Shown here one piece after another: positions 11,301 through 33,400 of a stretch of DNA of 64,000 nucleotides; the stretch's first letter is position 1, and every line of letters starts with the position of its first letter. Position numbers and translations under genes: made by a program. This DNA comes from Cladocopium goreaui. Its lineage: Eukaryota; Sar; Dinophyceae; Suessiales; Symbiodiniaceae. Location: positions 40,566 to 104,565 of the forward strand of contig CAMXCT020002327.1 of assembly GCA_947184155.2 (NCBI GenBank), written 5' to 3'. The notes under the pieces are model-generated. The model was not told the origin of the DNA. It ran no database searches and saw nothing but the letters and a program-made list of their open reading frames with translations.

Positions 11301-11732
11301 CTGGCCAACTCGTGCCGAGGGGAAACAGGCGGGATTCACCCCTCTCCCCACCTGGTTAAGAACAGAGCACGCATCGGGGCAAACTTACAGAGTACCCAAC
11401 ATCCAGTGGAAAGAATCACTGGGAGACCACTTGTCAAGATCCAGAGAAACAGCTACTCCCTCTCATGCTGGGGAAGTCTTCAAATTCGCATTTTCAAAAT
11501 TCGCCATCCAAACATCCGACTGCAAGGAACAGCCAACAATGCTGTGACACGTAGCGGCTCGGCTTCAAAGGAGCTGGCCTCCAAGACCTCTACATGACAT
11601 CTTTCCGTTTTCACACGAACTTCACCAATCCCTTGAAGATTACTCATCTTGCCACATCTCCAACAAAGTCCAACTACCCCAAACTGTTGCTCATCCCCCA
11701 ACACCTGCGAGCAGACGTTCAGCTGCAGGTGC

Positions 11733-11816
11733 CTCAGCTCCACGGTCACCGATGTTGTTGTTCAAGAGGTAAATCTCCTTCAAACTTCCATTGGTCTTAA
11801 GGCTTTCAGCCAGGGC
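11733..11816 (-). CDS. Gene B LRR exon, variable residues KE/Y/L
   Basis: 84-bp phase-0 LRR exon. Exposed positions read K,E / Y / L,N. This is the only unit where the framework leucine codon CTT is replaced (ATT, isoleucine). Confidence 0.8.
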
Positions 11817-12229
11817 CTGGCCAACTCGTGCCGAGGGGAAACAGGCGGGATTCACCCCCCTCTCTCCCACCTGGTTAAGAACAGAGCACACATCGGAGCA
11901 AACTTACAGCACCCCCCCCCAAAAAATCAGTGGACAGAATCACTAGGAGACCACTCTCTCATGCTGGGGAAGTCTTCAAATTCGCATTTTCAAAATTTGC
12001 CATCCAAACATCCGACTGCAAGGAACAGCCAACAATGCTGTGACACGTAGCGGCTCGGCTTCAAAGGAGCTGGCCTCCAAGACCTCTACATGACATCTTT
12101 CCGTTTTCACACAAACTTCACCAATCCCTTGACGATTACTCATCTTGCCACATCTCCAACAAAGTCCAACTACCCCAAACTGTTGCTCATCCCTCAACAC
12201 CAGCAGGCAGGCATTCCAGCCGCGGGCGC

Positions 12230-12313
12230 CTCAGCTCCACAGTCACCGATGTTGTTGTTTTGGAGCTTAAGCAACCCCAAACTTCCATTGGTCTTAAGGC
12301 TTTCAGCCAGGGC
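12230..12313 (-). CDS. Gene B LRR exon, variable residues GL/K/Q
   Basis: 84-bp phase-0 LRR exon. Exposed positions read G,L / K / Q,N; turn I-G-D-C-G-A-E. Confidence 0.8.
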
Positions 12314-12751
12314 CTGGCCAACTCGTGCCGAGGGGAAACAGGCGGGATTCACCCCCCTCTTCCCACCTGGTGAAGAACAGAGCACGGATCGGGGCAAACT
12401 TACAGAGTACCCAACATCCAGTGGAAAGAATCACTGGGAGACCACTTGTCAAGATCACTATTTCTCTGCAGCTACTCCCTCTCATGCTGGGGAAGTCTTC
12501 AAATTCGCATTTTCAAAATTTGCCATCCAAACATCCGACTGCAAGGAACAGCCAACAATGCTGTGACACGTAGCGGCTCGGCTTCAAAGGAGCTGGCCTC
12601 CAAGACCTCTACATGACATCTTTCCTTTCTCACACAAACTTCACAAATCCCTTGAAGATTACTCATCTTGCCACATCTCCAACAAAGTCCAACTACCCCA
12701 AACTGTTGCTCATCCCTCAACACCAGCGAGCAGGCGTTCAGCCGCAGGTGC

Positions 12752-12835
12752 CTCAGCTCCACGGTCACCGATGTTGTTGTCATGGAGGTAAAGCCACCAC
12801 AAACTTCCATTGGTCTTAAGGCTTTCAGCCAGGGC
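12752..12835 (-). CDS. Gene B LRR exon, variable residues WW/Y/H
   Basis: 84-bp phase-0 LRR exon. Exposed positions read W,W / Y / H,D; turn I-G-D-R-G-A-E. Confidence 0.8.
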
Positions 12836-13268
12836 CTGGCCAACTCGTGCCGAGGGGAAACAGTTGGGATTCACCCCCTCTCCCCACCTGGTTAAGAACA
12901 GAGCACACATCGGGGCAAACTTACAGAGTACCCAACATCCAGTGGACAGAATCACTGGGAGACCACTTGTCAAGATCCAGAGAAACAGCTACTCCCTCTC
13001 ATGCTGGGGAAGTCTTCAAATTCGCATTTTCAAAATTCGCCATCCAAACATCCGACTGCAAGGAACAGCCAACAATGCTGTGACACGTAGCGGCTCGGCT
13101 TCAAAGGAGCTGGCCTCCAAGACCTCTACATGACATCTTTCCTTTCTCACACAAACTTCACCAATCCCTTGAAGATTACTAACCTTGCCATATCTCCAAC
13201 AAAGTCCAACTACCCCAAACTGTTGCTCATCCCTCAACACCAGCGAGCAGGCGTTCAGCCGCAGGTGC

Positions 13269-13352
13269 CTCAGCTCCACGGACACCGATGTTGTTGTCAC
13301 GGAGGGAAAGCCACCACAAACTTCCATTGGTCTTAAGGCTTTCAGCCAGGGC
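13269..13352 (-). CDS. Gene B LRR exon, variable residues WW/S/R
   Basis: 84-bp phase-0 LRR exon. Exposed positions read W,W / S / R,D; turn I-G-V-R-G-A-E. Confidence 0.8.
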
Positions 13353-13785
13353 CTGGCCAACTCGTGCCGAGGGGAAACAGGCGGGATTCACCCCCTCTCC
13401 CCACCTGGTTAAGAACAGAGCACACATGGGGGCAAATTTACAGAGTACCCAACATCCAGTGGACAGAATCACTGGGAGACCACTTGTCAAGATCCAGAGA
13501 AACAGCTACTCCCTCTCATGCTGGGGAAGTCTTCAAATTCGCATTTTCAAAATTCGCCATCCAAACATCCGACTGCAAGGAACAGCCAACAATGCTGTGA
13601 CACGTAGCGGCTCGGCTCCAAGGGAGCTGACCTACAAGACCTCTACATGACATCTTTCCGTTTTCACACAAACTTCACCAATCCCGTGACGATTACTCAT
13701 CTTGCCACATCTCCAACAAAGTCCAACTACCCCAAACTGTTGCTCATCCCTCAACACCAGCGAGCAGGCGTTCAGCCGCAGGTGC

Positions 13786-13869
13786 CTCAGCTCCACGGTC
13801 ACCGATGTTGTTGTCATGGAGGGAAAGCCACCACAAACTTCCATTGGTCTTAAGGCTTTCAGCCAGGGC
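13786..13869 (-). CDS. Gene B LRR exon, variable residues WW/S/H
   Basis: 84-bp phase-0 LRR exon. Exposed positions read W,W / S / H,D; turn I-G-D-R-G-A-E. The unit is almost identical to those at 13269 and 12752. Confidence 0.8.
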
Positions 13870-14159
13870 CTGGCCAACTCGTGCCGAGGGGAAACAGGTG
13901 GGATTCACCCCTTCTCCCCCACCTGGTTAAGAACAGAGCACACATCGGAGAATATCTACGGAGTACAGTGCCCAAAATACAGAATCGGTGGGAGGAGACC
14001 ACCTGTCAAGACCACTATTTCTCTGCAGCCACTCAATCTCCTGTTGGGGAAGTTCCAGAATTCGCATTTTCAAGATTTGCCGATCCAGGGCCTCAAGAAC
14101 TGGCAAAAAATGTTGCAAATAGCTCTCCTCAAACCCGCAGCGTGTCGCAGCAGAGATGC

Positions 14160-15590: not shown

Positions 15591-15741
15591 CTGCGCATGT
15601 ATGGGACATGAGATAGACATGAGACAGAGTGTTGCTGGTGCTGAGACTGCAATATTGACGCCATCGTGGAAGGGACTAGATATATCTATATCATTCGTTC
15701 TGATATCAAACCTGTGTAAAAGACCCTTTGGTGGATCCGGC

Positions 15742-16909
15742 CTCTTCCCACAACACTTTGGCCGCTATAGTGTTGCCACTTTTCATGGCTCTGTTGAGCC
15801 TCTTTCCCAGCGCCGGGATCGCAGCCGAGCGCACGGGCTCAAACAATAAAAAGGTGAGAGCAACCTGTACTCCAGGTATGACTAGATTCAAGGCAGCGAC
15901 AAAAAAGGATCCGCCTTCAACAGCCAAAAAAAGGACAGACATCAGTGCCTGGGGCACATTCTCAATGAGCAAGTGGTGGCGCTTGCTCTTTGTCACTTGT
16001 CTGTAAATTGTGGGGAGGATAATGCCTTCCCAACAACCTCCGGACCACTCACCTTGGACCTTTGGGGCGATTAGCAAAACTGACAGGTGACTCGTGGCCA
16101 GCTCGTTAAAACAGTTTGCACCCAGTGCACCCCTTCTTGGACGGTCGAGCCAATCGCGAGGTGGGTATCTTGCAAGATAAAAAAACCAGGCATGGAAGGC
16201 TACTAGGTACGACCAGCTCAACACTCCGACTATCTTCATGAAAACGTGCTGTGACTGTAAACAAAGCCCTCCAAAAATGATGTCTTTCAAAGTGTCAAAC
16301 TGGTCAGATAAAAACCGGTGCCATGGAGGAAAATGAAGCCACAGCAAAAGCTGTGGCATCAAAGCGGTCACCCGCTTTGAGCCAGGCCACCGCCAGCACG
16401 GCTTGGATGAGAAGGGAAGCACCGGCACAACAAAACAGCAACAAATAAACTTCCCAGTCCAAGCCGAGTGTCTTGGACAGCCTTCCGTTTTCCAGGCTCC
16501 ACAGACATGCCGCGAAGCTCAACAATACCGTGCTGCCGAAGCTCAACATGACCAGCTGTAGTTGAGCTCCTTGGCTCAGTGGGGCGGTCTGACCCAGAGC
16601 CTGGTAGGAGCTGAATGCTTTTAATTCAGCTCCCACAACCATGATGACCGTTCCCACAATAGTAACAGACAGAAACACCGCCACAAAAACACAAAGAAAC
16701 CAATGGAAACGATCTGCCCTTTCCTGATCCGTCATGGCTCTGATTTCTGCAATCGTTGGGAGGAACTCTTTTGGCTCCTCAACCGTCTGCGCCGTAAAAT
16801 TTCCATGGAAAGGATTCTCTACGATTCCAACTAAATCCGGCAAGGCAGGCATCTCGGGCAGCGAAAGAGCCACAGCAGCAGAAACGAGGCTCAGCAGCTG
16901 GATTTTCAT
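15742..16909 (-). pseudogene. Gene B membrane exon, +1 frameshift near 16315
   Basis: The N-terminal 199 codons (16909-16314) encode the same leader and first three helices as gene A. After the extra base, reading continues in another frame (from about 16313) with helices 4 to 6 and the I-E-N-V-P-Q-A motif intact down to the conserved L-W-E-E end. The loop before C-F-N-E-L differs from gene A (R-Y-P-P-R-D-W region). It is otherwise highly similar to gene A. Confidence 0.85.
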
Positions 16910-19900
16910 GGCGCCACGTTGGGAGGTCTCGATCTGTTTCTATCTGCGCGCTGTTGAGCTTCCAAAACTGGCCACAGGAAGTGAAGGCGTGGGCCATGGG
17001 TGTGTCAGCTTCACGCAGTAGGTTATGAGGCTCAAAGCTGTTTCGAATTGTTGGAAATTTTGAGTTAGCCTCAAATATCGTTTAAATCATCCATTTCATC
17101 CATTTTCATAGGATTTTCCATGATAAGCCATCTATTTTGGGGTACCCCCATTTATGGAAACCCCCAGTTAGCCTCAGAGTTTGTCAGAGATCACAACCAA
17201 TCTGCGAAAGAATGAGATCCTGGAGATGCTTCGCAGCACTGTGATTCTTTTCCGAGCAGACGGTGATTCTTTGGCACTTGGCGCTCTCAACTCTTTGGAT
17301 CTTCCCTGCTTTCAAGGTCCATATGTGTCGAAGCTTGGAAGCCGTTTGCTATTTAAAGAAACACGGGCCACTGTTTATCCCCATTGTGTTTTGAAACATT
17401 GAGCCCTAAAAGCTTTTCATTCTGACAGTTTTCTTGCAAATCACACTCAACCTGAATTGCTTCAATAATCTTCAATATGTTCACACCTGCAACTTTCCAA
17501 GCATAGCCATGTATGGAATCCAAGGAATGGCCTATGCAGCAAACTGCTCTCAAAGTTCGTGATGTCGTGGCAGAGAGAGCATGGGACCTCTGCACAATCA
17601 GTCACTAGCGAATGCAAATCTCATGGCTCAAAGAACAAGCGGACCCTGTGACAGCTGTCCCCCACCACCAGCCAAGCTAATCTTCCTGCCGATGGTTCAG
17701 AAACCGGCATGCGAGTGACTCAGTGTGATTTCAGACAATTTACGGCCATCCACAGTACTGAGCAGCGCGCGTGTACTTTCTTCAGCCCACTTGTGCGGGC
17801 AAAAACAAAACACCTCAGCCTGTTTGCAGCTCCAGGTTAAGACGACATCCACTGAAACATCATTTCCTCTACCAATAGCAAACACTGCCCTGGGCAACTG
17901 AAGAAAACCGTCCCAAAAATCCAACGAAATGTGCGATGCGGGAATCCATTGATAGTGGATGTGAGAAACCTGCAACCTGTTTGGTCCTAAGATTAATTAC
18001 CATCTCTCTGCCGAGCCTGGGGTTGCTACAACACTCCTGGAGCGCGGAACGTGATTACCAGGAATGGGACTCCGTAAGACCAAAAATGCTGACATCTTCA
18101 AAAATTATGTTTGCACGCGTAGGTGTGCCCTAGTGGGAGCAGTATTTTGAAGCAAGAAGCGGACACTCCAAACAGATCGGCACTCTTGCGACACTCCCAT
18201 ATGTCAGTGACTCATGGTAGAATGCAATGAATTTGTTTGCTGAAAGACAAAAAATCCAACTGCATCAGTTCCGATGTAAATATCGAATTTCTGCATTGTC
18301 GTACTAGCTTGCCATACCGGCGCGGGTCATGGTTCCAAACTCCAGTTTGCCAGGTGACCAAGTGCATTTCACACCATGTTTTTCAGCTTGCTTGAGCAAA
18401 TATAGCAAGTACCTGCCTCAGGCTTAAGATGACACCCTCAAAAAGATAGGTTAACAGCAACATGTCATATCTTAATGCTGAAGTTGCTGTCTTATACGTT
18501 TGATTCTCTGTTTCGGCATTAAATAGCCATTATTTCTATCGACTTAGATATTGTTCTTAGGATATAAATTGCTCTAAGTCCATGAACAAGGTCAAAATCG
18601 CCCCACCCAAGCGGGTGGCCAAATTTCGACAGCCTCCCCAGCAGCCCTAGCCGGCCTTGCCGCTGCCATGGGCACTCCTGGAGGGCCATGGGATTTTGGC
18701 ATCTGTGTGGGGCACCTTGCCTCTGAATGAAGGAAAATTCATGGAAATCTGGTTTGTGGTTGACCTACTATGGCCATAGTACCCCTCTGAAAAATGATGG
18801 AGTTCGTCAATGGGAAGGATGACATCCCATATATTCTGGAAAATAATCCAGTCATGTTTGAAACCACCAGAAATTCATCAGCTGCATTGATTTCATCTGA
18901 TCTTGATCTTACAGAAATCCTAATTGTTGATGGAGAAACAGCTGGAATGTCACCGACAACGATTCTGCACAACCAATGATGACCTTCTTGGAACTGCGAA
19001 TTCACCGAATCCCCCCGGAATTGGTGTAGTGTAGTATTTATATAGAAGCCACAAGCGGACACTCCAACCAGTTTGTCCTCTCTTGGCACCTTTAAAAGTA
19101 TATCTGAATCTTAATCGCTTATACCCTGAAGTGCTAAAATTGGGAGTTGTTTATGCGGCTTGGGTTCGACATATTTAAGAGGACGCACCGCAAATGTGAA
19201 CAATTGTTCAGCAAGTGGTCCAACGCGACATCCAATTGCACCATGTTTGCATCAAACATATCCAATGATTCTCTCCGCAGCCTGCATCAATGCAGTCAAA
19301 CAAAACCCCACAGTTTCTCCCCCAAACCAATGCTGGCGCTCCTTTCCATGTGTCTGTCAGCCCCAGGCGCGACTCTCACCACGGAAAAAATATCCCCGCC
19401 GAAGTGATTTTTGCATAGTTTTACTATGTTTTGCTATGTTTTGGTAACATGGTACAGGCACTGGAAACTGTCCAGCCAAGTTTCAATCTTCGCACCACCT
19501 TTCGGGCCCAAAACGGATCAACAAACCCAGCATGATGCAATATCATCCTGTCAGAGATATGTCAGTCATGAGTGCTAAATGTCATGTTTGATGTGCCCAG
19601 GAAAACATCTCCACAGACCTTTATGAATGTGGATCATTGGAGGAAAGAGGCAAGAAAATGCGCAGCGATCGCAATTCGATCTTTTCTTCGATACGCTTAG
19701 CACCTCCAATATGTGCTGAAGCAGAACTGCAAACCTTTGAAGCTGATGCCAGAGCTGCCACATTCAATAACTTCATAGACTTAGCCAAGTTTCACTCAAC
19801 TCTATATTTAATCATCATATGATATATCATATTATATTGGCTTGATGTTGATGCCTTGCATTCAGACATTCGCAGCTCAAACGCATGGCTTCGAATAAAG

Positions 19901-20717
19901 CGTTGACAAGTTCCAAGGGAAAGGTCGCGTCTGTTCCACAGAGTGATTAGAAAGCCACGCTAGTTGAGCATGCGCATGCTTTCCTTAATTTCTTTCCAAC
20001 TGGTACCAGGAACAGTTATCCACTTGGGACTTCGTTGGAACAGAAGCACCACCCGTCATTTGCCAGCGCCTTGGTGTTCCAAGATGTTGGGCCATATTTC
20101 ATGGATGCATCTCACATGTTTGTACAAACCTTGTACATAGAGCAATTAATGCTTGCAACAGTCATCATGGCTACGAGTACTCAAAAATCCTCAAGGTTCC
20201 CAATATTCCAGAGCTTGGGACTCTTTGTTTGCTGTAAAGGTCTCTCAATTTCACATTCCCAGTCTCCACTTCAATTCTGTGACAGAACCTGCAATTCCAA
20301 GTACTGGCTGATGTCAAGTAGGAAAGCAACCTACACTGCAAACTTCTGCGCGGTAAAATACCTGTAAGTTGCATGATGATTTGAAGGGTTGTTTTTCTCC
20401 AAATACTCCATGCCAAGCTTCAATTCTTAAAATCAGTTGCCTCGCCAGGGACATGCCAAAAAGGCAAACACAAGACACATGGGGTGCAACAGTCTGACCA
20501 TGCCGAAGTAAAACCATAATGTGTTTATTATGTTTTATTGCATGCTTCGGATCTGTGAAAGTTAACTGCAATGAACACAAGCAGCCCTCCCGAATACAGC
20601 CAAGCAACTGCTGGATGCCCAATGGCCTCAAGATCCAAACCCCTCCAATCGTTCAATATGCGCTAGCCATACCTAGCCTGCGTTATGAATGTGCTTGGGT
20701 AACCTTGGATTCTCTCG
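16910..20717. other. Region upstream of gene B, no supported gene
   Basis: Near-identical copy of 4219-8051. No conserved reading frame could be supported. It ends at the left border of the mobile element. Confidence 0.5.
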
Positions 20718-23700
20718 TGAGAACATGTGTCGTGCGTTTCCAAACTGCTCACTTGAAAGCTGCTCGCACTGGTTCTTTTGGCCTGGGGTGCTCTGTGACA
20801 GCTGGTCCTGTCTGCTTGACAGCTGGAGCTGCTGCTGGAGCCAATCTCTCCCACACTGGCGCCAGTTCCCCATTCCTCCAGTGTGAGTCATAGTGAGTGG
20901 AGCAGGTTGGATCGCGATCATGTCGTTGAGTGCTTTCCCGTGAGCATAGTCCGAATCGACTGCCACGCGTGCCAGAATGTCATAGATGCCTTCCGCTGGT
21001 ATTTCCGTCCAATTGGCGTTGATTTTCTGCATCTCGTCATACTGGAAGCGAGAGACGCTGTCACTGATGTTCAGGTTGGACTGGACCCATTCGAGATGTA
21101 AGTGCCAGCCGTCGAGGGCGATGATCCTCCATACCAATGCCAGGACATTGCAGATGGCAGGGTCTCGGCAATAGCCTGTCCTCAAGGCAAAGAAGCCTGC
21201 CGTGTTGTCAATGAAGGACATCACCAGGTTCGAGGGCAATTGACGGCAGGTCAAGAATCCCATGAGTTGGGCAGCAATCTCGAGGAAGTAGATGTAGGCT
21301 TTCCTGGTACAAAACTTCTTGATGAGTCGTGAAGGCAAGCTTCCGGAGGAAAACCAAGTGTTGCCTTCGAAATGAATCACCACTCCCCAACCATTCTCAT
21401 AGGTATGGCACTTTGTCTTGTGCCAATGTTTCGGGATAGTCTTGGATCCTGGTGAGTGGTGTGTGCCATCAATCACGAAGTACGCATCTGAATAGAGGAC
21501 GATGCAACTTTGGTCCATCTGCTTGGGGATCACCCTGGGTTGGATCTCTCGAAGAAGATTCATCAGCGATCGTAGTGCCGATCTGAGTGGTCCGTTCAGT
21601 TGGCCGTCATGGTCGCCCTCTGAAAGTCCATGCGCTCTTGCGTAGAGCGGTTGGAGTGATGCGCGACCCAATTGGCCGAACAGAGTTGAGGTCAGGAAAA
21701 CCAACTTTCCTGCGAGTCGGTGAGCTGCCTCATCTGTCAGTCTGTTGGTCTCCAATGCATTCTGGATGACCTTCTTGGCCTTGTCGCATCGTTCAGGGTG
21801 TGGTGACAAAATCACCTCGTCCTCTGTGATGTGCATATTGATGCCCAAAACTTTCTGTCGGGCTGCTGGTGGTAGAGCCTTTCTTTCTTTCATGCGGAGT
21901 CCAAGTACCCTCATAAGGCGTGTGAACTCTGAGAAGCTGCTGTGTACCAGGGCTGAAGGCTCAACGCCAATGAAATCATCGACGTAGTGTCCCAGCGGCG
22001 TCGCCAGTAGACGGCGGCTCAAAAACATGATGCCGTCTGCAGCCCTGTTGAAGTTCCAAACTGAGCTCACTGCGCCGAAGGTCATCGCATGATGTTGAAG
22101 GAGTATTGGCCCTCTGGGTGTCATGAGGACACAGAAACAATCTGTTGGGTCACGTACTGGAAACTGTCTGTATGCTCCGTCCAGGTCCTGGGCCCAAACC
22201 AGAGATGTGTCTCCTCCCTGTGGGGCCGACAATGCCAGGTCAGTGAACGTTCTGATGTCATGGTGGTGTGGCACGTCATACGCCACAACTGTTGCTTTGT
22301 GGCCTGACCGACGGAAATCTTCGCACCGCCGGATCTTGTCGGCTTGGACCACACTAAAACAAAAACTGGTGCAGATGTTCTGAATGGGTAGCTGGAGCAA
22401 GGGCATCTCGTCGATGGTCGTGGTCTGAGTCGGCCACCAATCAGGAGCTCGGTAGGGTCCTGACATTCTGCCCTTCTTCAGCTCAGAGCGCAGTTCATCC
22501 AACATGGATGACCATTCTGGATCCACGCGTTTGCTGCGCAGTTTGGCTCTGGTATAGTGTTGGTTGTGCTTCATGAAGGTCTCGGCCGACGTTGGGAACT
22601 CATACTTGCTGTCAGCCCGTGGGAGCCAGCCCGCTCCCGCATGTAATTCGCCAGTCACCTGGAACCCTGACTGGAGGTCTTCTGTGAGCTCTGGAAGGCC
22701 TGGCATCTTGGCCAGGTCGAGCAATCGCAACAGAAGTGGAATCTGTGAGATTTGGTTGTGGTCTTTGTTGAAGTACACCTGGGCCACGTGAGGTGGAAGT
22801 GACTTCCACCAGGTCTCGGTCGCATCCATGCTGTCGAGGGCCCACTGTTCGATCTCGTCCACTATCTCTGTCCTCATGCGTGCGAGGCTGCCTCCAATGA
22901 TGCCGCGGAGGTCCACACATTGCTGTAGCCCCGGCTCCAGCCGAGGGGGCCGTTGTACTGGGTGACTGGAAGCCACGGCCATCTGCCAATGCTCCCACAT
23001 CGACCCGGCTTGGGCCACGCACGTTGCTTCGCTGGGCCATGTCCCTGGGCCCAGGTGCGGTGTCGTTGGCTGCAGGAAGGTCAGCATGGTCTGCAGCGCG
23101 GTGTGCCGTGGCTGTGGCACGGGTGACGAAGCGGTCACCATCAACATGGATTGGAGGACCAGCATCATGATGAACCGTGCTGATCCAATGTGCCAACCGT
23201 TTGCCAGCATTCTGTGTCTGGCTTTCTCCGACACTCCCGGGACTGACGTATACCATTTCGGCAGCTGGTGCAGCTGTTCCTTGGCTTCCGGGGGCGGGAC
23301 CACCATGCTCCCATCGGCTGCATGGAGAAGAGCCTCCTTGGAGTATTGCCATGGAGCAAATAGCCGCCCATCATTCATCCATCGCGCCTTCTGTTCAGGG
23401 TCTATCTTCCCTTTCAGCTTCTTCGGCGCTGGTCTGCCATCGTCCGATGGTGCTGGAGTTGTCAGACACGGGATGCGCTTGTCATGAGATGCCACCGCAT
23501 TGTGAAGTCGAAGGCCTTCCAGCTGGAGATCCGTCTCCTCCTGGAACGTGGTGTCGTGATGGAGACGGTGGTATTTTTGGCTCTTGGACCACCGTAACCG
23601 TTTCCCTGTGATGGGATTTGTCCGGATGCTGCTCCAGTCCACTCTTGTCCACCACAAACGAGGGCGGTTGATGAGGCCGAAGTCTTGCGCGTCAGACAAG

Positions 23701-24254
23701 ATCGCATTGCAGTCCAGGAGGCTGGAGAAATGGTCAGCCTCTCCCTTGTCCATCACCACGTTCTCGGTAAGGTGGCCTATCCTCCTGTGAGGTATGCCCA
23801 TCTCCACCTTCCTGATAAATTCACAGTATGCTGTGAATTTGTGGCCTTCTTCACCTGCTGAGCCTGGTGCATCTGAACGAATGCGTGAGAAATCAGGGCA
23901 TGGGGGAGCAGCTGCGAAGAGCACCAGCTTGGTGCCCTCAGGGTCATGGCGGTGTATCACTCTGGCGACCTCATCAGGGTCATCTTTGAGAAAATCGCCC
24001 CGGGTCACCGCCTCTGGGTGACGGGCCTTCAGCACTTCCATACAATCGCTGTCCACCTCCCATACAATGTGCAGCGAAATGGCTGCTACCAGCCCTTTGA
24101 GGACCAAAGCAGCAGACCCAATGCCGTCGAAACAGCTGACAAGGATGACCTCCTCATTTAACTTCTGGAAAACTTGGCCTCGCTCGGCCGTTGGTGGTTG
24201 GCTGGGTGGCGGGTACCCAGTGCTGTCGGGTGTCACGAGATCCACCTGTCTCAT
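20673..24254 (-). CDS. C5-cytosine methyltransferase / reverse transcriptase / RNase H fusion (1193 residues)
   Basis: Residues 37-370 are a cytosine-5 methyltransferase: S-C-F-D-G-I-G-S at 40-47 (SAM site), catalytic P-P-C at 117-119, E-N-V at 164-166, N-R-P-R-L-W-W at 196-202 and L-A-N-G-W near 350-354. The L-V-L-K-G-L after the SAM motif and the D-A-Q-x-F-x-x-x-x-R-x-R layout recall DNMT3 more than DNMT1. After a linker, residues 620-815 form the reverse transcriptase: D-L-D-G-A-Y-R-Q-F (690-698), F-G-A-V-S-S (726-731), Y-V-D-D-F (757-761) and L-G-I-N (803-806). RNase H follows, with S-D-A (922-924), E-I-A-A-Q (992-996), I-D-N-T (1015-1018) and the DIRS-like end N-I-S-D-S-V-S-R (1062-1069). 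The start lies 15 bp after the Gag stop. The last 14 residues and the stop are read from host flank beyond the element border. Confidence 0.92.
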   Translation of the reverse strand: MRQVDLVTPDSTGYPPPSQPPTAERGQVFQKLNEEVILVSCFDGIGSAALVLKGLVAAISLHIVWEVDSDCMEVLKARHPEAVTRGDFLKDDPDEVARVIHRHDPEGTKLVLFAAAPPCPDFSRIRSDAPGSAGEEGHKFTAYCEFIRKVEMGIPHRRIGHLTENVVMDKGEADHFSSLLDCNAILSDAQDFGLINRPRLWWTRVDWSSIRTNPITGKRLRWSKSQKYHRLHHDTTFQEETDLQLEGLRLHNAVASHDKRIPCLTTPAPSDDGRPAPKKLKGKIDPEQKARWMNDGRLFAPWQYSKEALLHAADGSMVVPPPEAKEQLHQLPKWYTSVPGVSEKARHRMLANGWHIGSARFIMMLVLQSMLMVTASSPVPQPRHTALQTMLTFLQPTTPHLGPGTWPSEATCVAQAGSMWEHWQMAVASSHPVQRPPRLEPGLQQCVDLRGIIGGSLARMRTEIVDEIEQWALDSMDATETWWKSLPPHVAQVYFNKDHNQISQIPLLLRLLDLAKMPGLPELTEDLQSGFQVTGELHAGAGWLPRADSKYEFPTSAETFMKHNQHYTRAKLRSKRVDPEWSSMLDELRSELKKGRMSGPYRAPDWWPTQTTTIDEMPLLQLPIQNICTSFCFSVVQADKIRRCEDFRRSGHKATVVAYDVPHHHDIRTFTDLALSAPQGGDTSLVWAQDLDGAYRQFPVRDPTDCFCVLMTPRGPILLQHHAMTFGAVSSVWNFNRAADGIMFLSRRLLATPLGHYVDDFIGVEPSALVHSSFSEFTRLMRVLGLRMKERKALPPAARQKVLGINMHITEDEVILSPHPERCDKAKKVIQNALETNRLTDEAAHRLAGKLVFLTSTLFGQLGRASLQPLYARAHGLSEGDHDGQLNGPLRSALRSLMNLLREIQPRVIPKQMDQSCIVLYSDAYFVIDGTHHSPGSKTIPKHWHKTKCHTYENGWGVVIHFEGNTWFSSGSLPSRLIKKFCTRKAYIYFLEIAAQLMGFLTCRQLPSNLVMSFIDNTAGFFALRTGYCRDPAICNVLALVWRIIALDGWHLHLEWVQSNLNISDSVSRFQYDEMQKINANWTEIPAEGIYDILARVAVDSDYAHGKALNDMIAIQPAPLTMTHTGGMGNWRQCGRDWLQQQLQLSSRQDQLSQSTPGQKNQCEQLSSEQFGNARHMFSRENPRLPKHIHNAG
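20718..20735 (+). repeat. Terminal inverted repeat, left (3' end of the element's coding strand)
   Basis: Reads TGAGAACATGTGTCGTGC inward. It pairs imperfectly with the right end (28535-28556 read on the minus strand), sharing TGAGA and ACATGTG. Confidence 0.65.
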
Positions 24255-24269
24255 GACCCCGTGTTGTCC

Positions 24270-25478
24270 CTATTTGGACGGCGTCTTCCAATCGGAAGAC
24301 CAGGGCTCCTTCTGCCACCTCGGCTTGTCATCCTGCTTCTGCGATCCCTGCCATGGGTGGGCGGCTCTGTCATAGCCGTCGTCCTTGTGCCATGTCCCCT
24401 GTTTTGTAGGGCGGCTGTAAGGAGAAGGTCTCGTGCCCTTCCCTGACTTTGTGCTACCTTTGCCATAACCCTTGGCTTCAGCCTTGGCAGGGGCTGATGG
24501 CATGGGCTTCTTGGTGGTCTGGCTGGGTTCACGGCTCATGCACTCAGTGAAAGAATCATAGTCCTTCATGATGAGCGCCGTGGCCTCCATGAACGTGCGG
24601 CCTCCTCTCATCTCAAGGGCCAGCTTCCAGGAGACCGTCATCCAGAACTGCGCAAGCTGGTCCGTCTTCTGTGGTCTGCTGCGGACCAACCTGACCAGCC
24701 AATCGAAAAAGGCGTGGACCGCCTGCTCGGTGCCCAGCTTGCATAGGATGAAGCACCATCGAATGCTCGCCAAGCCGTCCAGGATGGCAAGGACGCTCCG
24801 AGGTTGCCACGGTTCCTCAGGGGTGGCCACAAGTTGCTCACCTGTCAATGTGAGCTTGGTCACATTGCGCTCTCTCTTTGCGAGAGGGTTCGGCTCACCA
24901 TTGGCCTGAAAGGTCCTGGTCGAGATCAGCTCCCCCAGCAACACTGGGGTATAGTTCTTGCTGGTCTCATGCTCGTGTAGGACCCGGGCGATGACAGCTT
25001 CTGTCCCCAGTAACTCCTGGACTGGGAAGACTCTGTCTTGGCCTCCGATCTGCTGTGACTGGTATTCCTGCACCAGTGCTGTCCAACGTCCTGGAGCCAG
25101 TGCCTTGGGGACCTTGTCCTCGGCTGGTGTTGAGGCTGCCGTGGAAGATGTGCTGTGGGTCGGTGTGGCCTTCGGCATGGCTGCATGTTGTGTCGCTTCC
25201 CATACCTGCTTGGCCATCATCCACATGTGCAGCAATACCGCCTTGGCAATGGGCTTGTCCTGTTCTCGCACGGTGATGGTCGTGCCATCAGGTCTAGGCC
25301 AGCCCTGTAGGAGAGGCTGTATCAGGGTGAGGTCGAGGTTGTCTTCGTCTCGACTCAGAAGGGCCAAAGTGGCCGGAGTCTTGATCCCTCTGGCGTCGAG
25401 GTATTCGTTGACTATGTCGCCAGCCGCCGCGTCTCTTGCTAGGTCTGCCAGCGACGTGGGTGCAAGGGAGAGCACCAT
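24270..25478 (-). CDS. Gag-like protein of the DIRS-like element (402 residues)
   Basis: The start at 25478 (M-V-L-S-L-A-P-T) is preferred over the in-frame ATG at 25646, whose extra 56 residues look like untranslated leader. The middle is helical and Trp-rich. The last 80 residues are basic and rich in Lys, Gly, Ser, Pro and Trp, as expected of a nucleic-acid-binding Gag tail without a CCHC knuckle. Position directly before the polymerase ORF supports a Gag role. There is no catalytic motif and no direct family match that I recognise. Confidence 0.65.
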   Translation of the reverse strand: MVLSLAPTSLADLARDAAAGDIVNEYLDARGIKTPATLALLSRDEDNLDLTLIQPLLQGWPRPDGTTITVREQDKPIAKAVLLHMWMMAKQVWEATQHAAMPKATPTHSTSSTAASTPAEDKVPKALAPGRWTALVQEYQSQQIGGQDRVFPVQELLGTEAVIARVLHEHETSKNYTPVLLGELISTRTFQANGEPNPLAKRERNVTKLTLTGEQLVATPEEPWQPRSVLAILDGLASIRWCFILCKLGTEQAVHAFFDWLVRLVRSRPQKTDQLAQFWMTVSWKLALEMRGGRTFMEATALIMKDYDSFTECMSREPSQTTKKPMPSAPAKAEAKGYGKGSTKSGKGTRPSPYSRPTKQGTWHKDDGYDRAAHPWQGSQKQDDKPRWQKEPWSSDWKTPSK

Positions 25479-25696
25479 GGTCGTGAAGTCTCGTTGGGAC
25501 CGGTTGTGCTCAGCCAGACTGAGGGATAAACAAAAATACATCAAATCAGCAAAATAAAATAACGAAGCACTGTCAATCGCACCTTCAAATGAAGCAAACG
25601 TGGGAAACAATCCGGCATGAGAGGCATGACAATGAAAAATGAACACAAATAAACTTCAAATATGCCTCGGTCACGCTGTCATTGTTGGAATGCACG

Positions 25697-25707
25697 TGAG
25701 AAATGTG
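25697..25707 (+). repeat. Possible internal copy of the element end
   Basis: TGAGAAATGTG in the spacer between the recombinase and Gag ORFs matches the left end TGAGAACATGTG with one base missing. DIRS elements carry internal copies of their ends, but a match this short could be chance. Confidence 0.25.
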
Positions 25708-25771
25708 AAGTATGTTGTGGCCGCTTTGTTTTTCCATCTCCGCATGTGGTCAGCTCGCCTGCTGGAGCCGC

Positions 25772-27481
25772 CTAGTCTGCCTCTGCGCTGCTTGCAGAGG
25801 AGCTGGCTAAATCAGTGAGGCCTGAGGACCCGTCACTGCTATCTGAGCTTGAGTCTTCGCTCAAGTTAAAACACTTCCTACAACGTCTGGCTCCGTCAAA
25901 CTCGTTGGACGTTCTCAAAAATGTGCGACTGCCGTAGTTCCAGCCACACGGTGTCCGCCATTTGACGGGTTCATTGCTGTCCTCATGATGTGAGGCTTTG
26001 TGAAGGATTCTGGCCCTTGGACGGAAAACATAGGTTTGTGCAGGCGCCTGCACGGCCTGCTTCACTTGTTCGAGCTCAGCTTTCAAGCCTCTGACTGCTG
26101 CTGCCAGGGCCTTGGGTCTGGCTGCGGGTGCAGCCGGTTGAGGCGACGCCTGGCTCGATGATGCCTTGCCGGCTCCCTGAACCACTTGTAGTTGTAGTTT
26201 GCATGTGCCAGCCGCATCGACTTGCAACACTTGTTGGGGTATCTGGGGCACCCTATTCAAGGCGCTGTCCTGGGTGTAGCGCAGTACGGCTGTACTGGTC
26301 CACCTCCCGAGCAACTGGATCAAGGAGAGCTCGACCCCAGAGCTCGACAGCATCTGTGCACCTGAGATCCGGAGCACGTGGCCGTGGTATCTCTGTGTCT
26401 CTTGCCCCTCTGGACCTGGGCGTGTGAGTGAAGTTCCCGTTCTTGCTATGACTCTTCGAACCGCTTCAATGAAGGTATTCTTGGATGCTGTGCGTCCGTC
26501 TGAATCTGGAAACAGTGGAAGGTGTTGCTGTGAGCCTTCATTGACGAGGGCTTCCAGTCGGACCAGGTGACGTTCGGCACTGTGCCAAACACACATCCCG
26601 TGGATTTTCACGGTGCAGGAGCATGTCAAGGACCGTTCTGTGTACCGTCCTCGTTGATCCGTCTTGTGGATGGGAATGCTCAGACAGACTTCGTTGCCAT
26701 CTAGGCGGAGGTCGCATGCCCGTGCACTTGCCATTTCAGACTCACGGAGCATGAACCACAACCCGATCATGGCCATGTCCCGGCAGTGGGAGATATTGTC
26801 AAACGAAAAAGGCTCTTCATCTGAGGTCGGCTGTATGCCTCCTAAAAGTAGCCCGTTAAAGGCATCCTTGAGCTTGCTCTCGCCAAGCCCACGTTGGATG
26901 GATCTGATGCAATCTCTGATGCCCAGCTTGACAATGGCTGGGACTGGTGTCTTGAGTACTCTCTGTTGGTGGCCGCATATGGCCTGAAAGTACACTGCCG
27001 CACTGCGATACCCACCCGCTTTGAGCGATGCACCAAAGCATCTGATATTGTTGCCGTCCAGTGGGAATCCAGCTATCTCCCAAGCACGGCAGATGGCCAT
27101 GTAGGTTCGGACTCGAGCTTCTACTGCTGGGTTGGTTGACTTCGCCAACACATCTTGGTCCAGAAGTTGCAAAGACCGTTGCCTCTGGTTCGGTAAGGCC
27201 GCTTCCAACGCCGCCTGTAAACAGGCTCTCTTGCCCATGCGACGCACCGGAAGATCAATCCGGTTTGTTGTGTCCGGGGTAGCGCCCGGGCCTGCTGCCG
27301 GGGTCCCCGAGGAGGCAAGGATGGCTTCCAATTGCCAATGGGGCATGCCTGCCTCATGCAGTGCGTCATACCTCAACACCAGCTGGTTGAGGCTGACGAT
27401 CCCATGGCGGACCAGGTCAGGGGCAAGTTGTTCAAGCCCAGCCCTGCGAAGGGAGTCCCACAACTCTCCTAAATTGGACAT
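25772..27481 (-). CDS. Tyrosine recombinase of the DIRS-like element (569 residues)
   Basis: The start at 27481 (M-S-N-L-G-E-L-W) is chosen; an upstream in-frame ATG at 27541 adds 20 residues. Numbering from the upstream ATG, the catalytic set is visible: Arg266 in F-M-L-R-E-S-E, Lys293 in I-H-K-T-D, His388 and Arg391 in H-G-H-V-L-R, Trp414 in L-L-G-R-W-T-S and the nucleophile Tyr422 in V-L-R-Y-T. A helical DNA-binding region (about 110-230) precedes the catalytic domain. A C-terminal extension has a coiled-coil-like stretch (475-500), a C-G-W plus C-R-K-C cluster (532-557) that may bind zinc, and an acidic serine-rich end. It would integrate the circular DNA copy. Confidence 0.9.
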   Translation of the reverse strand: MSNLGELWDSLRRAGLEQLAPDLVRHGIVSLNQLVLRYDALHEAGMPHWQLEAILASSGTPAAGPGATPDTTNRIDLPVRRMGKRACLQAALEAALPNQRQRSLQLLDQDVLAKSTNPAVEARVRTYMAICRAWEIAGFPLDGNNIRCFGASLKAGGYRSAAVYFQAICGHQQRVLKTPVPAIVKLGIRDCIRSIQRGLGESKLKDAFNGLLLGGIQPTSDEEPFSFDNISHCRDMAMIGLWFMLRESEMASARACDLRLDGNEVCLSIPIHKTDQRGRYTERSLTCSCTVKIHGMCVWHSAERHLVRLEALVNEGSQQHLPLFPDSDGRTASKNTFIEAVRRVIARTGTSLTRPGPEGQETQRYHGHVLRISGAQMLSSSGVELSLIQLLGRWTSTAVLRYTQDSALNRVPQIPQQVLQVDAAGTCKLQLQVVQGAGKASSSQASPQPAAPAARPKALAAAVRGLKAELEQVKQAVQAPAQTYVFRPRARILHKASHHEDSNEPVKWRTPCGWNYGSRTFLRTSNEFDGARRCRKCFNLSEDSSSDSSDGSSGLTDLASSSASSAEAD

Positions 27482-27870
27482 CTGAGAGCAGCCAGACTGT
27501 GGTGGAAATCCGAAACTGTGTAAAGAAATGCATGCAATCAAATGAAATCAAGGCAAGTGAAATACACACAGCAAGATTCACTTCGTGCATCGTCAACCCT
27601 ACACACTGCAAGACAAAACTGAAACGCTGAATGCATTCACGTTGGAGAAACAGAATGTCTCCGAGTCACATGCTATGAGTGATGAGAAGGGCTGATGAAG
27701 CCCAGATTGCAGGCACTTGCAGAACTCTGCGGTCCCTTTTTCAACCCGCGCAATGATCAAAATGAGCAGAGCCTGTCCCCTGTCCGGTCTCGAAGTAGAC
27801 AGAGGAGATGAGGCCCTGGCTTAGCCCGACTGTCATGGTATTCGAAATCTCATAGGTGTACCCTGTGCAT
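27482..27870. other. Spacer between the unknown ORF and the recombinase ORF
   Basis: 389 bp within the element without a coding signal. It may hold an internal promoter or the internal complementary region known from DIRS elements, but I could not identify one. Confidence 0.3.
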
Positions 27871-28446
27871 TCACTGGGGCTGCTGGCCAGCCATCATGGC
27901 TTCCTGAAGCCTGTCCTGAGTTCTTTCCAGGAGCGCCGTCTGCATGCGCCACTGATAGTTTTTCAGGGCCGTTTGGATCAGGTTGAGGGACGGGAAGATG
28001 TCATAATAGCGAAGTTCCTCTATGGCCAGCACCGCAGAGTAGAGGAGCCGGTCTGCCCGGGTCCCTGATTCGGCGTCTTTGGCGAGGCGCCAACGAATCA
28101 TATGATCCGTGGCAAGTTCCAGTTCAGCCCTGAGCGCGGTCATCTCTCGGGCTACCTCCTCTCCAGTGGGATGGTCTGGACCCTCTGTCCATACAAAGTC
28201 CCCTTCTGCCATGGCCGCTGTCGACTCACAGGCTAAGGGGCCAATGATGGCCATCATCTGGACAAGAGTCAGGCTCAGGTGCCGAACTGGGTTGTTGCCG
28301 CATAGCGTCCAGTGGTCCAGCGCTGAAGTGGCTGCCATCAGCAATAGGCCCACTACGGGGCTGGTGGCGTTGTCCGGAAAGATGGTGTTGCGCGCCAGCT
28401 GCGCGTCTGCCACCCTCTCCATGAGGGACAATGCCAATGCAGCCAT
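27871..28446 (-). CDS. Unknown 191-residue protein at the 5' end of the DIRS-like element
   Basis: The first ORF of the element, starting 110 bp inside its 5' end. It is predicted mostly helical, with a hydrophobic N-terminal half and a charged C-terminal half (L-R-A-E-L-E-L, R-W-R-L-A-K-D, and a Gln-rich end). No domain recognised. Its intact frame over 191 codons between other intact element ORFs suggests it is real. It could be a second Gag-like protein or an accessory factor. Confidence 0.55.
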   Translation of the reverse strand: MAALALSLMERVADAQLARNTIFPDNATSPVVGLLLMAATSALDHWTLCGNNPVRHLSLTLVQMMAIIGPLACESTAAMAEGDFVWTEGPDHPTGEEVAREMTALRAELELATDHMIRWRLAKDAESGTRADRLLYSAVLAIEELRYYDIFPSLNLIQTALKNYQWRMQTALLERTQDRLQEAMMAGQQPQ

Positions 28447-28534
28447 GGCTGACGTGACCTATCTGGACCTTGCTTTGGGCTATTTGAGCCTCTGTAGCTG
28501 CACCGTTGGCAGTTCAGCACTACCTCCCCATGTT

Positions 28535-28556
28535 CCTATGCACATGTGTGCTCTCA
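28535..28556 (-). repeat. Terminal inverted repeat, right (5' end of the element's coding strand)
   Basis: Reads TGAGAGCACACATGTGCA inward on the minus strand. Its outer five bases equal those of the left end, and ACATGTG follows four bases later than at the left end. Confidence 0.65.
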
Positions 28557-29075
28557 TTCAATTGTTGTCCGAGTCTGTGTTCATTCATGGTGAATAAGCA
28601 CCTTCTGGTTTCATAACGCAATGTTCAATTGCTGTGCGTGCTAGATGGGTTCCAAGATTTCACAAGACGATACCACCACTTGACAAACTGACATGGTACT
28701 TGACGGGTCAGCAGAAGGAAAGCACGCAAAGGTCAACAGCTGCAGCTAAAGAAGAACGACACCTGTCATCATGTTCAGAATCAAACTTGAATCAAACCAT
28801 GCTGAAGAAAAACATTGCGCAACTGAGGCTTTATTTTGTTGAAAACTATTGAACATTATTGAACTAAAACTCTTCATGGCTTATGTTGTGCACAACAGTC
28901 TGAGATCCCTGACACCTTCGCCGTGACCTTCTGCTGCCAAGCTGCCATTCCTTTCAGCCAAGCCCTCGGACCCATCCCGTCTCAGTTTCACATCCTGGGC
29001 GCGCCAGTCGTCAGAGCTTCCTAGTGCCATACAGGTGACCCACACCGCAGAGTTGCACGTCCCGAATTTGTGCTA

Positions 29076-29367
29076 TTAAATCGAATCATGAATCATATCA
29101 TCTGAGGGTAGCTCATACTGAACATATTTTGGGCCTTTTTGGGCGCCAAGCTGCCACCAGATTTCGAAGTCATCGCCCCGCTCCTGTTTGATCTTCTCTG
29201 CCTCTTCCAATGCCTGGCCGCCCCCGACCTCCACGACACCCTACTCCTAACGGAACCCCCACTGGCGCCTGGAGGCCCGGTGGCCAAGGTCCCCACAGAT
29301 TGGACCCAAATTCGCTGAGAGAAAGTCTCCAGAGACTTCGGTTCTGCACCAGACCAGCGGCCAAGGC
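29076..29367 (-). CDS. Extra 3' terminal exon pair downstream of gene C
   Basis: Penultimate exon 29367-29269 (33 residues) and tail 29213-29076 (45 residues plus TAA), separated by a 55-bp GC-AG intron. Near-identical to 8866-8575. The stop lies about 520 bp from the border of the mobile element. Either an alternative 3' end of gene C or a duplicated relic. Confidence 0.6.
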
Positions 29368-29572
29368 CTGGCACTTGACATCGGATCCCACCACGCAGGG
29401 TGCCAGAATTCGAAACTTCCGACTGAAAGGAACAGCCACCAATGCTGTGACATGTAGCTGCTTGCGCTACCAATATGTTTGGGTACCCATGGATTCTACA
29501 GTGAGTCCTTTTTTGCAGCATGTATTCATTCATGGTGCCCTCAGCTCCTGGTTTCAAAACGCAATGTAGAAG

Positions 29573-29593
29573 TGCTGTGTGTGTGTGTGTGTG
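29573..29593. repeat. (GT)n microsatellite
   Basis: About ten GT units; the copy-A counterpart near 9074 has fewer, a small length polymorphism between the duplicates. Confidence 0.9.
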
Positions 29594-30244
29594 CTCGAAG
29601 GGTTCCAAGATTTCACAGGACCATATCGCCATTTCAGAAACACACATAGTCTACTTATAGTACTTGTGCTCAAACGGATTGAACTCTGTGGCATTAGAAG
29701 TTCGAGTTGCAGGTCGACCAACACCAGATTTCGATCAGGCAATGTGGCACAAGTTTGTGGGTACTGAAATGAACATATCTGGATATCGACAATTACACTA
29801 CCACACTTTGAGACGAGGTTGTAGACATGCTATAAAAGGAAAAAGGGTCAGAGAAAAGGAAAGCACGCAAAGGTCAACAGCTGCAGCTAAAGAAGAACGA
29901 CACCTGTCATCATGTTCAGAATCAAACTTGAATCAAACCATGCTGAAGAAAACATTGCGCAACTGAGGCTTTGTTTTGTTGAAAACTATTGAACATTATT
30001 GAACTAAAACTCTTCATGGCTTATGTTGTGCACAACAGTCTGAGATCCCTGACACCTTCGCCGTGACCTTCTGCCAAGCTGCCATTCCTTTCAGCCAAGC
30101 CCTCGGACCCATTCCCGTCTCTTCACATCCTGGGTGCGCCAGTCGTCAGAGCTTCCTAGTGCCATACAGGTGACCCACACCGCAGAGTTGCACGTCCCGA
30201 ATTTGTGCCCAGTGAACCCCAAAATAGCTGGGATTCATGGATGT

Positions 30245-30406
30245 TCATCCCCCTAAAAATGGTATGTATAGGTATTGATCCATAGCCATATCATCTGAGG
30301 GTAGCTCATACTGAACATGTTTTGGGCATTTTTGGGCGCCAAGCTGCCACCAGATTTCGAAGTCATCGCCCCGCTCCTGTTTGATCTTCTCTGCCTCTTC
30401 CAATGC
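30245..30406 (-). CDS. Gene C tail exon
   Basis: 53 residues plus stop: A-L-E-E-A-E-K-I-K-Q, then R-G-D-D-F-E-I-W-W-Q-L-G, Y-E-L-P-S-D-D-M and a distinct end. Acceptor GGCCAG|GCA. Confidence 0.7.
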   Translation of the reverse strand, partial: ALEEAEKIKQERGDDFEIWWQLGAQKCPKHVQYELPSDDMAMDQYLYIPFLGG

Positions 30407-33400
30407 CTGGCCGCCCCCGGGCTCCACGACACCCTACTCCTAACTGAACCCCCCACTGGCGCCTGGAAGCCCGGTGGCCAAGGTCCCCACAGATTGGACC
30501 CAAATTCGCTGAGAGAAAGTCTCCAGAGACTTCGGTTCTGCAGCAGACCAGCGGCCAAGGCCTGGCACTTGACATCGGATCCGACCGCGCAGGGTCCGGA
30601 CAATCCTGAACTTCCGACTGCAAGGAACAGCCACCAATGCTGTGACATGTAGCTGCTCAGCTTTGGAAGAACTGACCTACAACTCTGCCACATCTCCTTT
30701 TTCACATAGTCATAGACTTCACTCCCAACTATATACTTGATCTTTCCGGCAACATCTCCAGCAAAGTCCAGCTACCCAGACCATCACCCATCCCCCGGAA
30801 AACCAGCAGGCCCCAGCAGGGCCTCAGCTCCACAGTCACCGAAGTTGTTGGAGTTGAGGAAGAGCCACCGCAAACTTCCGTTGCTCTTCAGGCTTTCTGC
30901 CAGGGCCTTGCCATCTGCCGGTTGGGGGGAAAAGCAGAGAAACACTTCAGGGGAAATCTGCACTGTGGCCCTTCCAAAACCAACAAGAAGCGGACGGAAT
31001 TACCATGTAACAAGCTCTCAATGACCATTTGCAAAAAGCTGGTTGAATTTTAATCGTGCGATCACCGAGAGTTCAAAAAAACAAATGAATCTGGTGGTGT
31101 CTTCCATTGTTGCCTCTTTTTCATTGGCTCTGTGAATGACCTGAGGAGAGCTTATGCGGTTGCTCAACCCGCAGTTGCCGAACTGTACAGTAGCACAGCT
31201 CATGACCAAACCCCCCTTGCAAATGCCGAACGATGCTTCAAATTGCTTCACTCATTGCTCATATATGCTCATATAATGTCACATTGGTACTACAGTAGGA
31301 AGCTTGAAGCATCACAGGCCTACAACATCTCCCACACCTGCCGCAGGCGCCTCAGCGCCACAGTCACCGATGTTGTTGTCCTCCAGCTCAAGCCACCCCA
31401 AACTTCCGGTGCTCGCAAGGGTTTCAGCCAGGGCCTGGCCGTCTGGGTGCCACGAACTGTCAGATAGACTCCATGAAAAGTTTGCACAGTGGCTCTTCCA
31501 AAACCGAAAACAACTGGACGGAATCAAAGACTGTTTGCAAAGAAAAATATGTTGACGCGCCTGAATTTCAAGCATGCGATCACCCAAAGAAAACAATCTG
31601 GTTTGCTCCACACAGATTCATAACGCAGAACAAAGGAATCAGGTGGTGTGTGGCATTGTTTAGTTCTGCTTCATCGGCTTTGCTAAGGACTAAGGAGAGC
31701 TTCTCCGGTTGCTCAACCCACAACAGTTGCCGAATCGTACGAGTACGGCGACACAGCTTCTGACCAAATCACACCCTGCAAATGCCCCACAAACGAACGA
31801 CGTATCCAATCCCTGTACCACTGTACCGATATCTTAGTCGGGAAATGTGAAGCATCACAGGCCTGCAACATCTTCCACACCTTTGTCACCCAAACTTCAC
31901 CCCCCAACCCCTTGAAATCCTTGAAGATCACCTGATCACCTGGCCTTTCTTACATTTTCTTACCACATCTCCAGCCCCAGCTGGACAAACTGTCGCTCGA
32001 ATCCCCCAAGACCAGCAGGCCCCGGCTGCAGGCGCCTCAGCGCCACGGTCACCGATGTTGTTGTTCTGGAGCTCAAGCCACCCCAAACTTCCGTTGCTTT
32101 TAAGGCCTTCAGCCAGGGCCTGGCCGTCTGCCGGGGGAAATTTGCACAGCGGCCAAACTGACAACAAATTGACGGAATCACCATGGCGGCGCCAAGGATC
32201 CCTCGTAAATAATCTCTCAAAAGACTGTTTGCAAAGAAAAATATGTTGACGCGCCTGAATTTCAAGCATGCGATCACCCAAGAGAAAACAATATGGTTTG
32301 CTCCACATAGATTTATAACGCAGAACAAACGAATCAGGTGGTCTGTGGCATTGTTTAGTTCTGCTTCATCGGCTTTGCTAAGGACTAAGGAGAGCTTCTG
32401 CGGTTGCTCAACCCACAACAGTTGCCAAATGGTACAATGGCACAGTTCTGACCAAACCACTCCCTGCAAGAATGTTTTGCTGACTAGCGGATGGATTTGA
32501 ACAACCCTAATAGATCGGAATATTTACTGAATTACTGGGTAATCTTATGACATCTTGTGACTTATGACTCTTTTTGGACTGAAAAATAAACCTCCTACTG
32601 CTCCTCCTTGATCTCGCTCAATCTGAACCCCCACCTCGTTGCCTCGTTTGAGGTCGCTATAAATTATGCGACATCTCCATACATCTCGCACGCCTTTCCT
32701 GTTTCACACAAACTTAACCCCCAGCACAACCTCTTTGAAGATCACCTGGCCTTTCTTGCCACATCTCCAGCCCCTGCCCCAAACTGTCGCTTAGATCCCC
32801 CAAGACCAGCAGGCCCCAGCAGGCGCCTCAGCTCCACGGTCACCGATCTTGTTGTTCTCGAGCCAAAGTCCCTTCAATCTTTTGTTGCTCTTAAGGCTTT
32901 CAGCCAGGGCCTGGCCGTCTGTGGTGGGGGAACAGTCGGGATTGACCGCTGCGAAGTGGACAGAATCACCCTGCGGGAGGAAAGATCACTTGTCAAGACC
33001 ACTACCCATATTCTTTCAGTGGCAGCAGAGGTGCCTCCGCACCCTGCTCCCCGATGTCGTTGTTGTTAAGGACAAGCTCCTCCGTGGTGGTGGTCTTAAG
33101 AGCCTCCGCCACAACCTGTGGCAGCCCGGTCGCAGAAAATCTAAACTGATGCTTTTCAATGGTGGAAAACTCGGGACAGGTATAACAAACCCAAAATATG
33201 ACCATGCAAAACACTCGTTCCATGCTGAAACAACCCAAAATATGACCATGCAAAACACTCGTTCCATGTTGAAACAATGTTTTTTGGCACTTATTCTCTC
33301 TTGTTATAGCCGCGCACTTCCCTGCAAATACAAATACTGACACTTTGGACAGCTCTCCCAGTAGACTCATCTTTCTCGATGGAACAGTTGGGCCCTTGTC

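What the first reader, a model, noticed from the sequence alone, without database searches (positions are those of the whole stretch)
20718..28556. DIRS-like retrotransposon carrying a DNMT3-like cytosine methyltransferase fused to its reverse transcriptase
Seen: one 1193-residue frame with C5-methyltransferase motifs (S-C-F-D-G-I-G, P-P-C, E-N-V, R-x-R, N-G-W) followed by RT (Y-V-D-D) and a DIRS-type RNase H, beside a tyrosine recombinase with R-K-H-R-W-Y. Known: DIRS1 elements often carry a methyltransferase, but of the Dam-like N6-adenine family. I recall that cytosine-methyltransferase-bearing retrotransposons have been reported in Symbiodinium and a charophyte alga, so the new part would be the recombinase-type backbone and the N-terminal fusion. 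All catalytic residues are intact, so the enzyme may be active, perhaps methylating the element's own DNA to shelter it.
Basis: partly seen in the sequence, partly recalled or inferred. Interest (0 to 1): 0.9.

Follow-up and report, generated by a model that had tools for sequence, protein, structure and literature searches.

The report
Retrotransposon carrying a DNA methylation enzyme
This stretch of algal (dinoflagellate) DNA is a jumping element whose copying enzyme is fused to a DNA-methylating enzyme; such elements were described in 2018, so it is real and curious but not new in kind.

Summary
On the minus strand lies a ~7.84 kb insertion (about 20719-28556), delimited by an empty, closely similar copy of the site elsewhere in the window. 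It encodes, 5' to 3', a 191-aa ORF, a tyrosine recombinase, a gag-position ORF, and a Pol fusing a DNMT3-type cytosine methyltransferase to RT and a probable RNase H. Profile and fold comparisons place the N-terminal domain with DNMT3. The fusion is an old family: DNMT and RT/RH distances correlate at r=0.95 across 33 of 37 aligned proteins. The claimed novelty fails: de Mendoza et al. 2018 (PMC5890265) described SymbioDIRS-Dnmt3 elements with the DNMT in Pol and a separate tyrosine recombinase; DNMTs of two copies methylated CG in yeast. Two corrections: this copy shows no DIRS-type split or inverted repeats, only ACACATGT at each end; and it is not fully intact (conserved Pol start reads GTG; an RT residue that is N in 36 of 36 relatives is K; the Pol stop lies in flanking DNA). 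Most likely mechanism, as those authors proposed: Pol copies the RNA and methylates its own cDNA, and the recombinase inserts it. What methylation is for remains unshown.

The parts
20719..28556 (-). whole inserted element, about 7.84 kb, ends known to within about 9 nt, no target-site duplication seen
   Evidence: empty copy of the site at about 8050-8061: 6880-8055 matches 19540-20721 (94%), 8061-9585 matches 28565-30088 (95%)
27871..28446 (-). ORF of 191 aa at the 5' end, function unknown
   Evidence: codon score 0.297 in frame against -0.382 and -0.234 in the other two frames (11 of 84 frames outside the element cut-off, one of them Pol itself, also score 0.15 or more); no Pfam or NCBIfam match; homologs not sought
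25772..27481 (-). tyrosine recombinase, 569 aa from the ATG that fits its relatives, with a conserved C-terminal Cys-rich motif
   Evidence: PF00589 E 1.5e-5, just under the curated cut-off, matched by 26 of 31 family rows; 79 homologs; catalytic residues invariant in 31 of 31 rows; Cre profile hits, best E 1.4e-4
24270..25478 (-). gag-position ORF, 402 aa: helical region and a low-confidence Gly/Lys-rich tail
   Evidence: 55 homologs; model pLDDT 74.4; no fold match at E<=0.001, no PDB sequence match at E<=1; Gag role inferred from position only
20673..24254 (-). Pol: DNMT3-like C5-MTase (residues about 32-372) - connector - RT - probable RNase H; the stop codon lies in flanking DNA; family start position 24236 reads GTG here
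23139..24161 (-). DNMT3-like domain (residues 32-372 of the 1193-aa frame)
28542..28549 (-). ACACATGT near the 5' end of the element; possible recombinase site
   Evidence: one of only two occurrences in 20719-28566; a direct match this good between the two ends is reached by 0.85% of 2000 shuffles for 25-nt ends, 2.05% for 40-nt, 7.35% for 60-nt; chosen after the fact
20723..20730 (-). ACACATGT near the 3' end of the element

Best explanation
A copy of a tyrosine-recombinase retrotransposon of a dinoflagellate (probably Symbiodiniaceae), of the kind published as SymbioDIRS-Dnmt3. Shown here: the anatomy, the fusion of a DNMT3-type domain to RT, the shared history of the two parts, and a clean insertion without visible target duplication. 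Shown in the literature for relatives: DNMTs of two such copies methylate CG de novo in yeast. Inferred: the gag-position protein packages the RNA, Pol makes cDNA and the tethered DNMT methylates its CGs, and the recombinase inserts a double-stranded, probably circular form. The methyl marks would make the new DNA resemble the heavily CG-methylated host genome. This particular copy is probably no longer fully competent.
Against: No repeats of the published A-coding-B-A-B type found in this copy. CG observed/expected of the element (0.64) is like the rest of the window (0.63); TG+CA is slightly higher (1.40 against 1.32), so the sequence gives no clear trace of self-methylation. The paper likewise saw no CG depletion in these elements against DIRS without DNMT, and notes that a DNMT is not needed for retrotransposition. 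Motif I is a gap in 10 of 37 rows; P0002 begins only at window residue 363 and P0020 at 248, so they lack most of the DNMT. These may be truncated predictions, or decay. The family profile matched no RT or RNase H chain in PDB by sequence at E<=0.1, and the C-terminal piece matched no Pfam family. No other copy's DNA could be read.
Confidence: 0.8

Rival explanations
1. The DNMT serves something other than marking the element's own cDNA: it slows transposition to the host's benefit, acts against DNA viruses, or methylates host DNA in trans.
For: The PMC5890265 discussion raises slower transposition and effects on the host methylome; PMC6338049 speculates on antiviral defence by transposon methylases (passages). 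No CG depletion in this copy.
Against: Covalent tethering to RT, kept through most of the family, places the enzyme at the cDNA.
Confidence: 0.2
2. DNMT and RT frames were joined here by chance or assembly error.
For: Motif I is missing in 10 of 37 aligned rows, and 2 of 37 lack most of the DNMT part.
Against: 34 of 37 rows keep the Pro-Cys of motif IV in the same frame as RT; congruent histories.
Confidence: 0.01
3. This copy lost its repeats: recombination between B repeats or 3' truncation removed B1-A2, leaving A-coding-B.
For: Published relatives have A-coding-B-A-B; the 3' end lies about 25 nt beyond the last residues that align with P0001's C-terminus; other decay is present.
Against: The 42-aa tail of P0002 beyond the boundary has no convincing match in the window; the two tips share ACACATGT, found nowhere else in the element.
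Confidence: 0.6

Closest known systems
SymbioDIRS-Dnmt3 (de Mendoza et al. 2018, PMC5890265)
   Same: Dnmt3-type DNMT in the Pol ORF with RT, separate tyrosine recombinase ORF, uninterrupted frames, Symbiodinium and its kin
   Different: published elements have A-coding-B-A-B repeats, not found in this copy; which of the two published domain orders this matches could not be checked, because the figure itself is not held, and no published element sequence was compared directly
KnitGypsy-Dnmt3 of Klebsormidium nitens (same paper)
   Same: Dnmt3 in a retrotransposon Pol ORF
   Different: Gypsy backbone; this element has a tyrosine recombinase
SymbioLINE-Dnmt (same paper)
   Same: dinoflagellate retrotransposon carrying a C5-MTase
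   Different: LINE with the DNMT in a separate ORF1, of an orphan DNMT lineage
DIRS1/PAT elements with Dam-like methyltransferase
   Same: RT/RH plus tyrosine recombinase plus a methyltransferase
   Different: their methyltransferase is N6-adenine type; here it is C5-cytosine, DNMT3 type

Membership tests
SymbioDIRS-Dnmt3 | Dnmt3-family domain in the same ORF as RT | tested here: met
SymbioDIRS-Dnmt3 | separate tyrosine recombinase ORF | tested here: met
SymbioDIRS-Dnmt3 | A-coding-B-A-B repeats | tested here: not met
   none found in this one copy; other copies not readable, so membership is left open on this point
SymbioDIRS-Dnmt3 | purifying selection on the DNMT (Ka/Ks) | not tested
   no DNA of other copies; at protein level mean DNMT distance 0.565 against RT/RH 0.578
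SymbioDIRS-Dnmt3 | CG de novo methylation activity | not testable with these tools
   reported for two relatives in PMC5890265 (passage)
DIRS order (tyrosine-recombinase retrotransposons) | RT with RNase H and a tyrosine recombinase | tested here: met
   recombinase and RT; RNase H only by conserved acidic residues and position, no Pfam match
DIRS order (tyrosine-recombinase retrotransposons) | inverted repeats with internal complementary region, or split direct repeats | tested here: not met
   this copy only
DIRS order (tyrosine-recombinase retrotransposons) | no target-site duplication (recalled) | tested here: met
   comparison with the empty site
DIRS1/PAT with Dam-like methyltransferase | N6-adenine methyltransferase domain | tested here: not met
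   only C5-MTase matches in Pfam and PDB
SymbioLINE-Dnmt | DNMT in an ORF separate from RT | tested here: not met
   single frame

The most novel reading that the evidence does not exclude
A lineage of DNMT3-bearing tyrosine-recombinase retrotransposons that dispenses with split or inverted repeats and integrates through short recombinase sites (ACACATGT at both tips). That would need a reverse-transcription and circularisation route unlike the accepted DIRS/PAT models.
Probability: 0.12. Interest if true: 0.5.

Novelty: new member of a known kind. Interest (0 to 1): 0.25.

Why it matters
Retrotransposons that carry their own cytosine methyltransferase invert the usual picture, in which methylation is the host's weapon against them. 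The kind is published, so this copy adds detail: insertion ends fixed by an empty site, a fold-level DNMT3 assignment, a conserved ORF in the gag position, and protein-level evidence that the DNMT is about as conserved as the RT. If the repeat-less ends prove typical of the family, they would bear on how tyrosine-recombinase retrotransposons complete reverse transcription.

Full report
What is there. A C-terminal RNase H is probable: four acidic residues (D923, E992, D1016, D1065; pattern recalled) are kept in 36 of 36, 32 of 33, 31 of 33 and 29 of 32 rows with a residue there, but no Pfam RNase H family matched. Upstream on the same strand lie a gag-position ORF (24270-25478, 402 aa from the ATG that fits its relatives), a tyrosine recombinase (25772-27481, 569 aa) and a 191-aa ORF (27871-28446). 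The 191-aa ORF has the codon usage of the other three (the score is not specific, since 11 of 84 other frames, Pol among them, reach 0.15). Its homologs were not sought.

Where it ends. The window carries a duplicated host segment: 3051-6801 matches 15720-19538 (92%), 6880-8055 matches 19540-20721 (94%), and 8061-9585 matches 28565-30088 (95%). The first copy is continuous where the second carries the element, so it shows the empty site. The insertion runs from about 20719 to 28556, known to within about nine bases, and no target duplication is visible, as expected of a tyrosine recombinase (recalled). One consequence is that about the last 14 codons of the 1193-aa frame, and the stop, are host DNA.

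The fusion is old and kept. Of 8000 scored candidates, 48 proteins matched Pol (a capped search, so a lower bound). In an alignment of 37 rows (the window and 36 of the 48), 34 keep the Pro-Cys of motif IV, 35 ENV and 37 Y/FVDD; motif I is a gap in 10 of 37, and P0002 and P0020 begin inside or after the DNMT. DNMT and RT/RH distances correlate at r 0.948 with 0 of 2000 permutations reaching it. Of 16 well-supported DNMT splits, 11 are shared with the RT/RH tree and 1 is in conflict (P0002, P0015, P0020 and P0039 dropped for short coverage). Mean distances are 0.565 (DNMT) and 0.578 (RT/RH). The recombinase has 79 homologs (capped likewise) and its six catalytic residues are invariant in 31 of 31 aligned rows. 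Seven longest-contig lengths (582123, 124198, 371233, 8821, 544861, 42943, 940459) occur in both the Pol and the recombinase lists, six of them also in the gag-position list. Equal length is taken as the same contig, an inference. In the record named Skav, genes 231578 (Pol) and 231579 (recombinase) lie on scaffold481 in the same order as here.

Organism. Named relatives come from Symbiodinium sp. CCMP2592, Effrenium voratum (Symbiodiniaceae) and Skav gene models, taken from recall to be Fugacium (Symbiodinium) kawagutii. The window is therefore inferred to be dinoflagellate, probably Symbiodiniaceae; the species is not known.

State of this copy. A second copy, P0002, with another 3' flank, differs at 4 of 816 shared residues (window residues 363 to 1178), so the lineage probably moved recently. 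The window's copy differs from its relatives at two highly conserved positions: the start codon of Pol (GTG where 25 of 26 rows have M) and RT residue 653 (K where 36 of 36 have N). It is best read as a young but probably impaired copy. The 90% clusters of P0001 and P0051 hold 121 and 94 member sequences, which suggests many copies but is not a count in this genome.

Ends. The published elements have repeats in the order A-coding-B-A-B (figure legend). Three searches found no convincing repeats of that kind here, nor inverted ones. The only feature shared by the tips is ACACATGT, which occurs twice in the element, 7 and 4 nt inside its two ends. Shuffles reach such a match in 0.85% of cases for 25-nt ends, 2.05% for 40-nt and 7.35% for 60-nt (the 5' piece used there includes 10 nt of flank), so the evidence is weak. 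Loss of repeats in this copy is the likelier explanation; short-site integration is the bolder one.

Known or new. PMC5890265 (abstract, passages and sections 6, 7 and 11 read) describes this kind of element, reports CG methylation activity for DNMTs of two copies in yeast, and proposes cDNA methylation. PMC12344493 (passages) cites DNMT3 members in DIRS elements of dinoflagellates from that paper. The term SymbioDIRS occurs in one paper of the library. PMC6338049 (passages) offers an antiviral speculation. PMC6681497 and PMC4157794 (passages) supply the repeat-based classification. Other papers were seen as search listings only. Because the repeat criterion failed in this copy, full membership in SymbioDIRS-Dnmt3 is left open, although the coding part is of that kind.

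How it most likely works. RT, probable RNase H and DNMT are one protein, so methylation can be coupled to cDNA synthesis, and the recombinase inserts the product. CG observed/expected is 0.64 in the element and 0.63 in the rest of the window; TG+CA is 1.40 against 1.32. The sequence alone gives no clear sign for or against self-methylation, and this step remains inferred.

Noticed in passing
window 3051-9585 and 15720-30088: Duplicated host segment at 92-95% identity, one copy with and one without the element: a natural empty site.
   Followed up: yes
window 28705-30657: A unit of about 1.14 kb is repeated right beside the 5' end of the element (28705-29462 against 29845-30657, 95-96%); at least one unit also exists in the empty copy (8201-8961).
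   Followed up: partly
window 3040-4390, 15719-16972, 34861-36204, 57862-58997: Four related stretches at 66-92% DNA identity with long minus-strand frames, hydrophobic by eye; the two frames scanned against Pfam (3007-4248, 57852-59102) gave no match.
   Followed up: partly
window 10559-14087: About seven tandem units of roughly 520 nt, related to 1-1027.
   Followed up: no
window 25871-25948: C-terminal Cys-rich motif of the recombinase (C532, C554, C557, with H514 and W528) invariant in 31 of 31 aligned rows; looks like a zinc-binding module after the catalytic domain.
   Followed up: partly
window 45522-46528 and 50863-51943: Long low-complexity tandem repeats that give open frames of repetitive sequence.
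   Followed up: no
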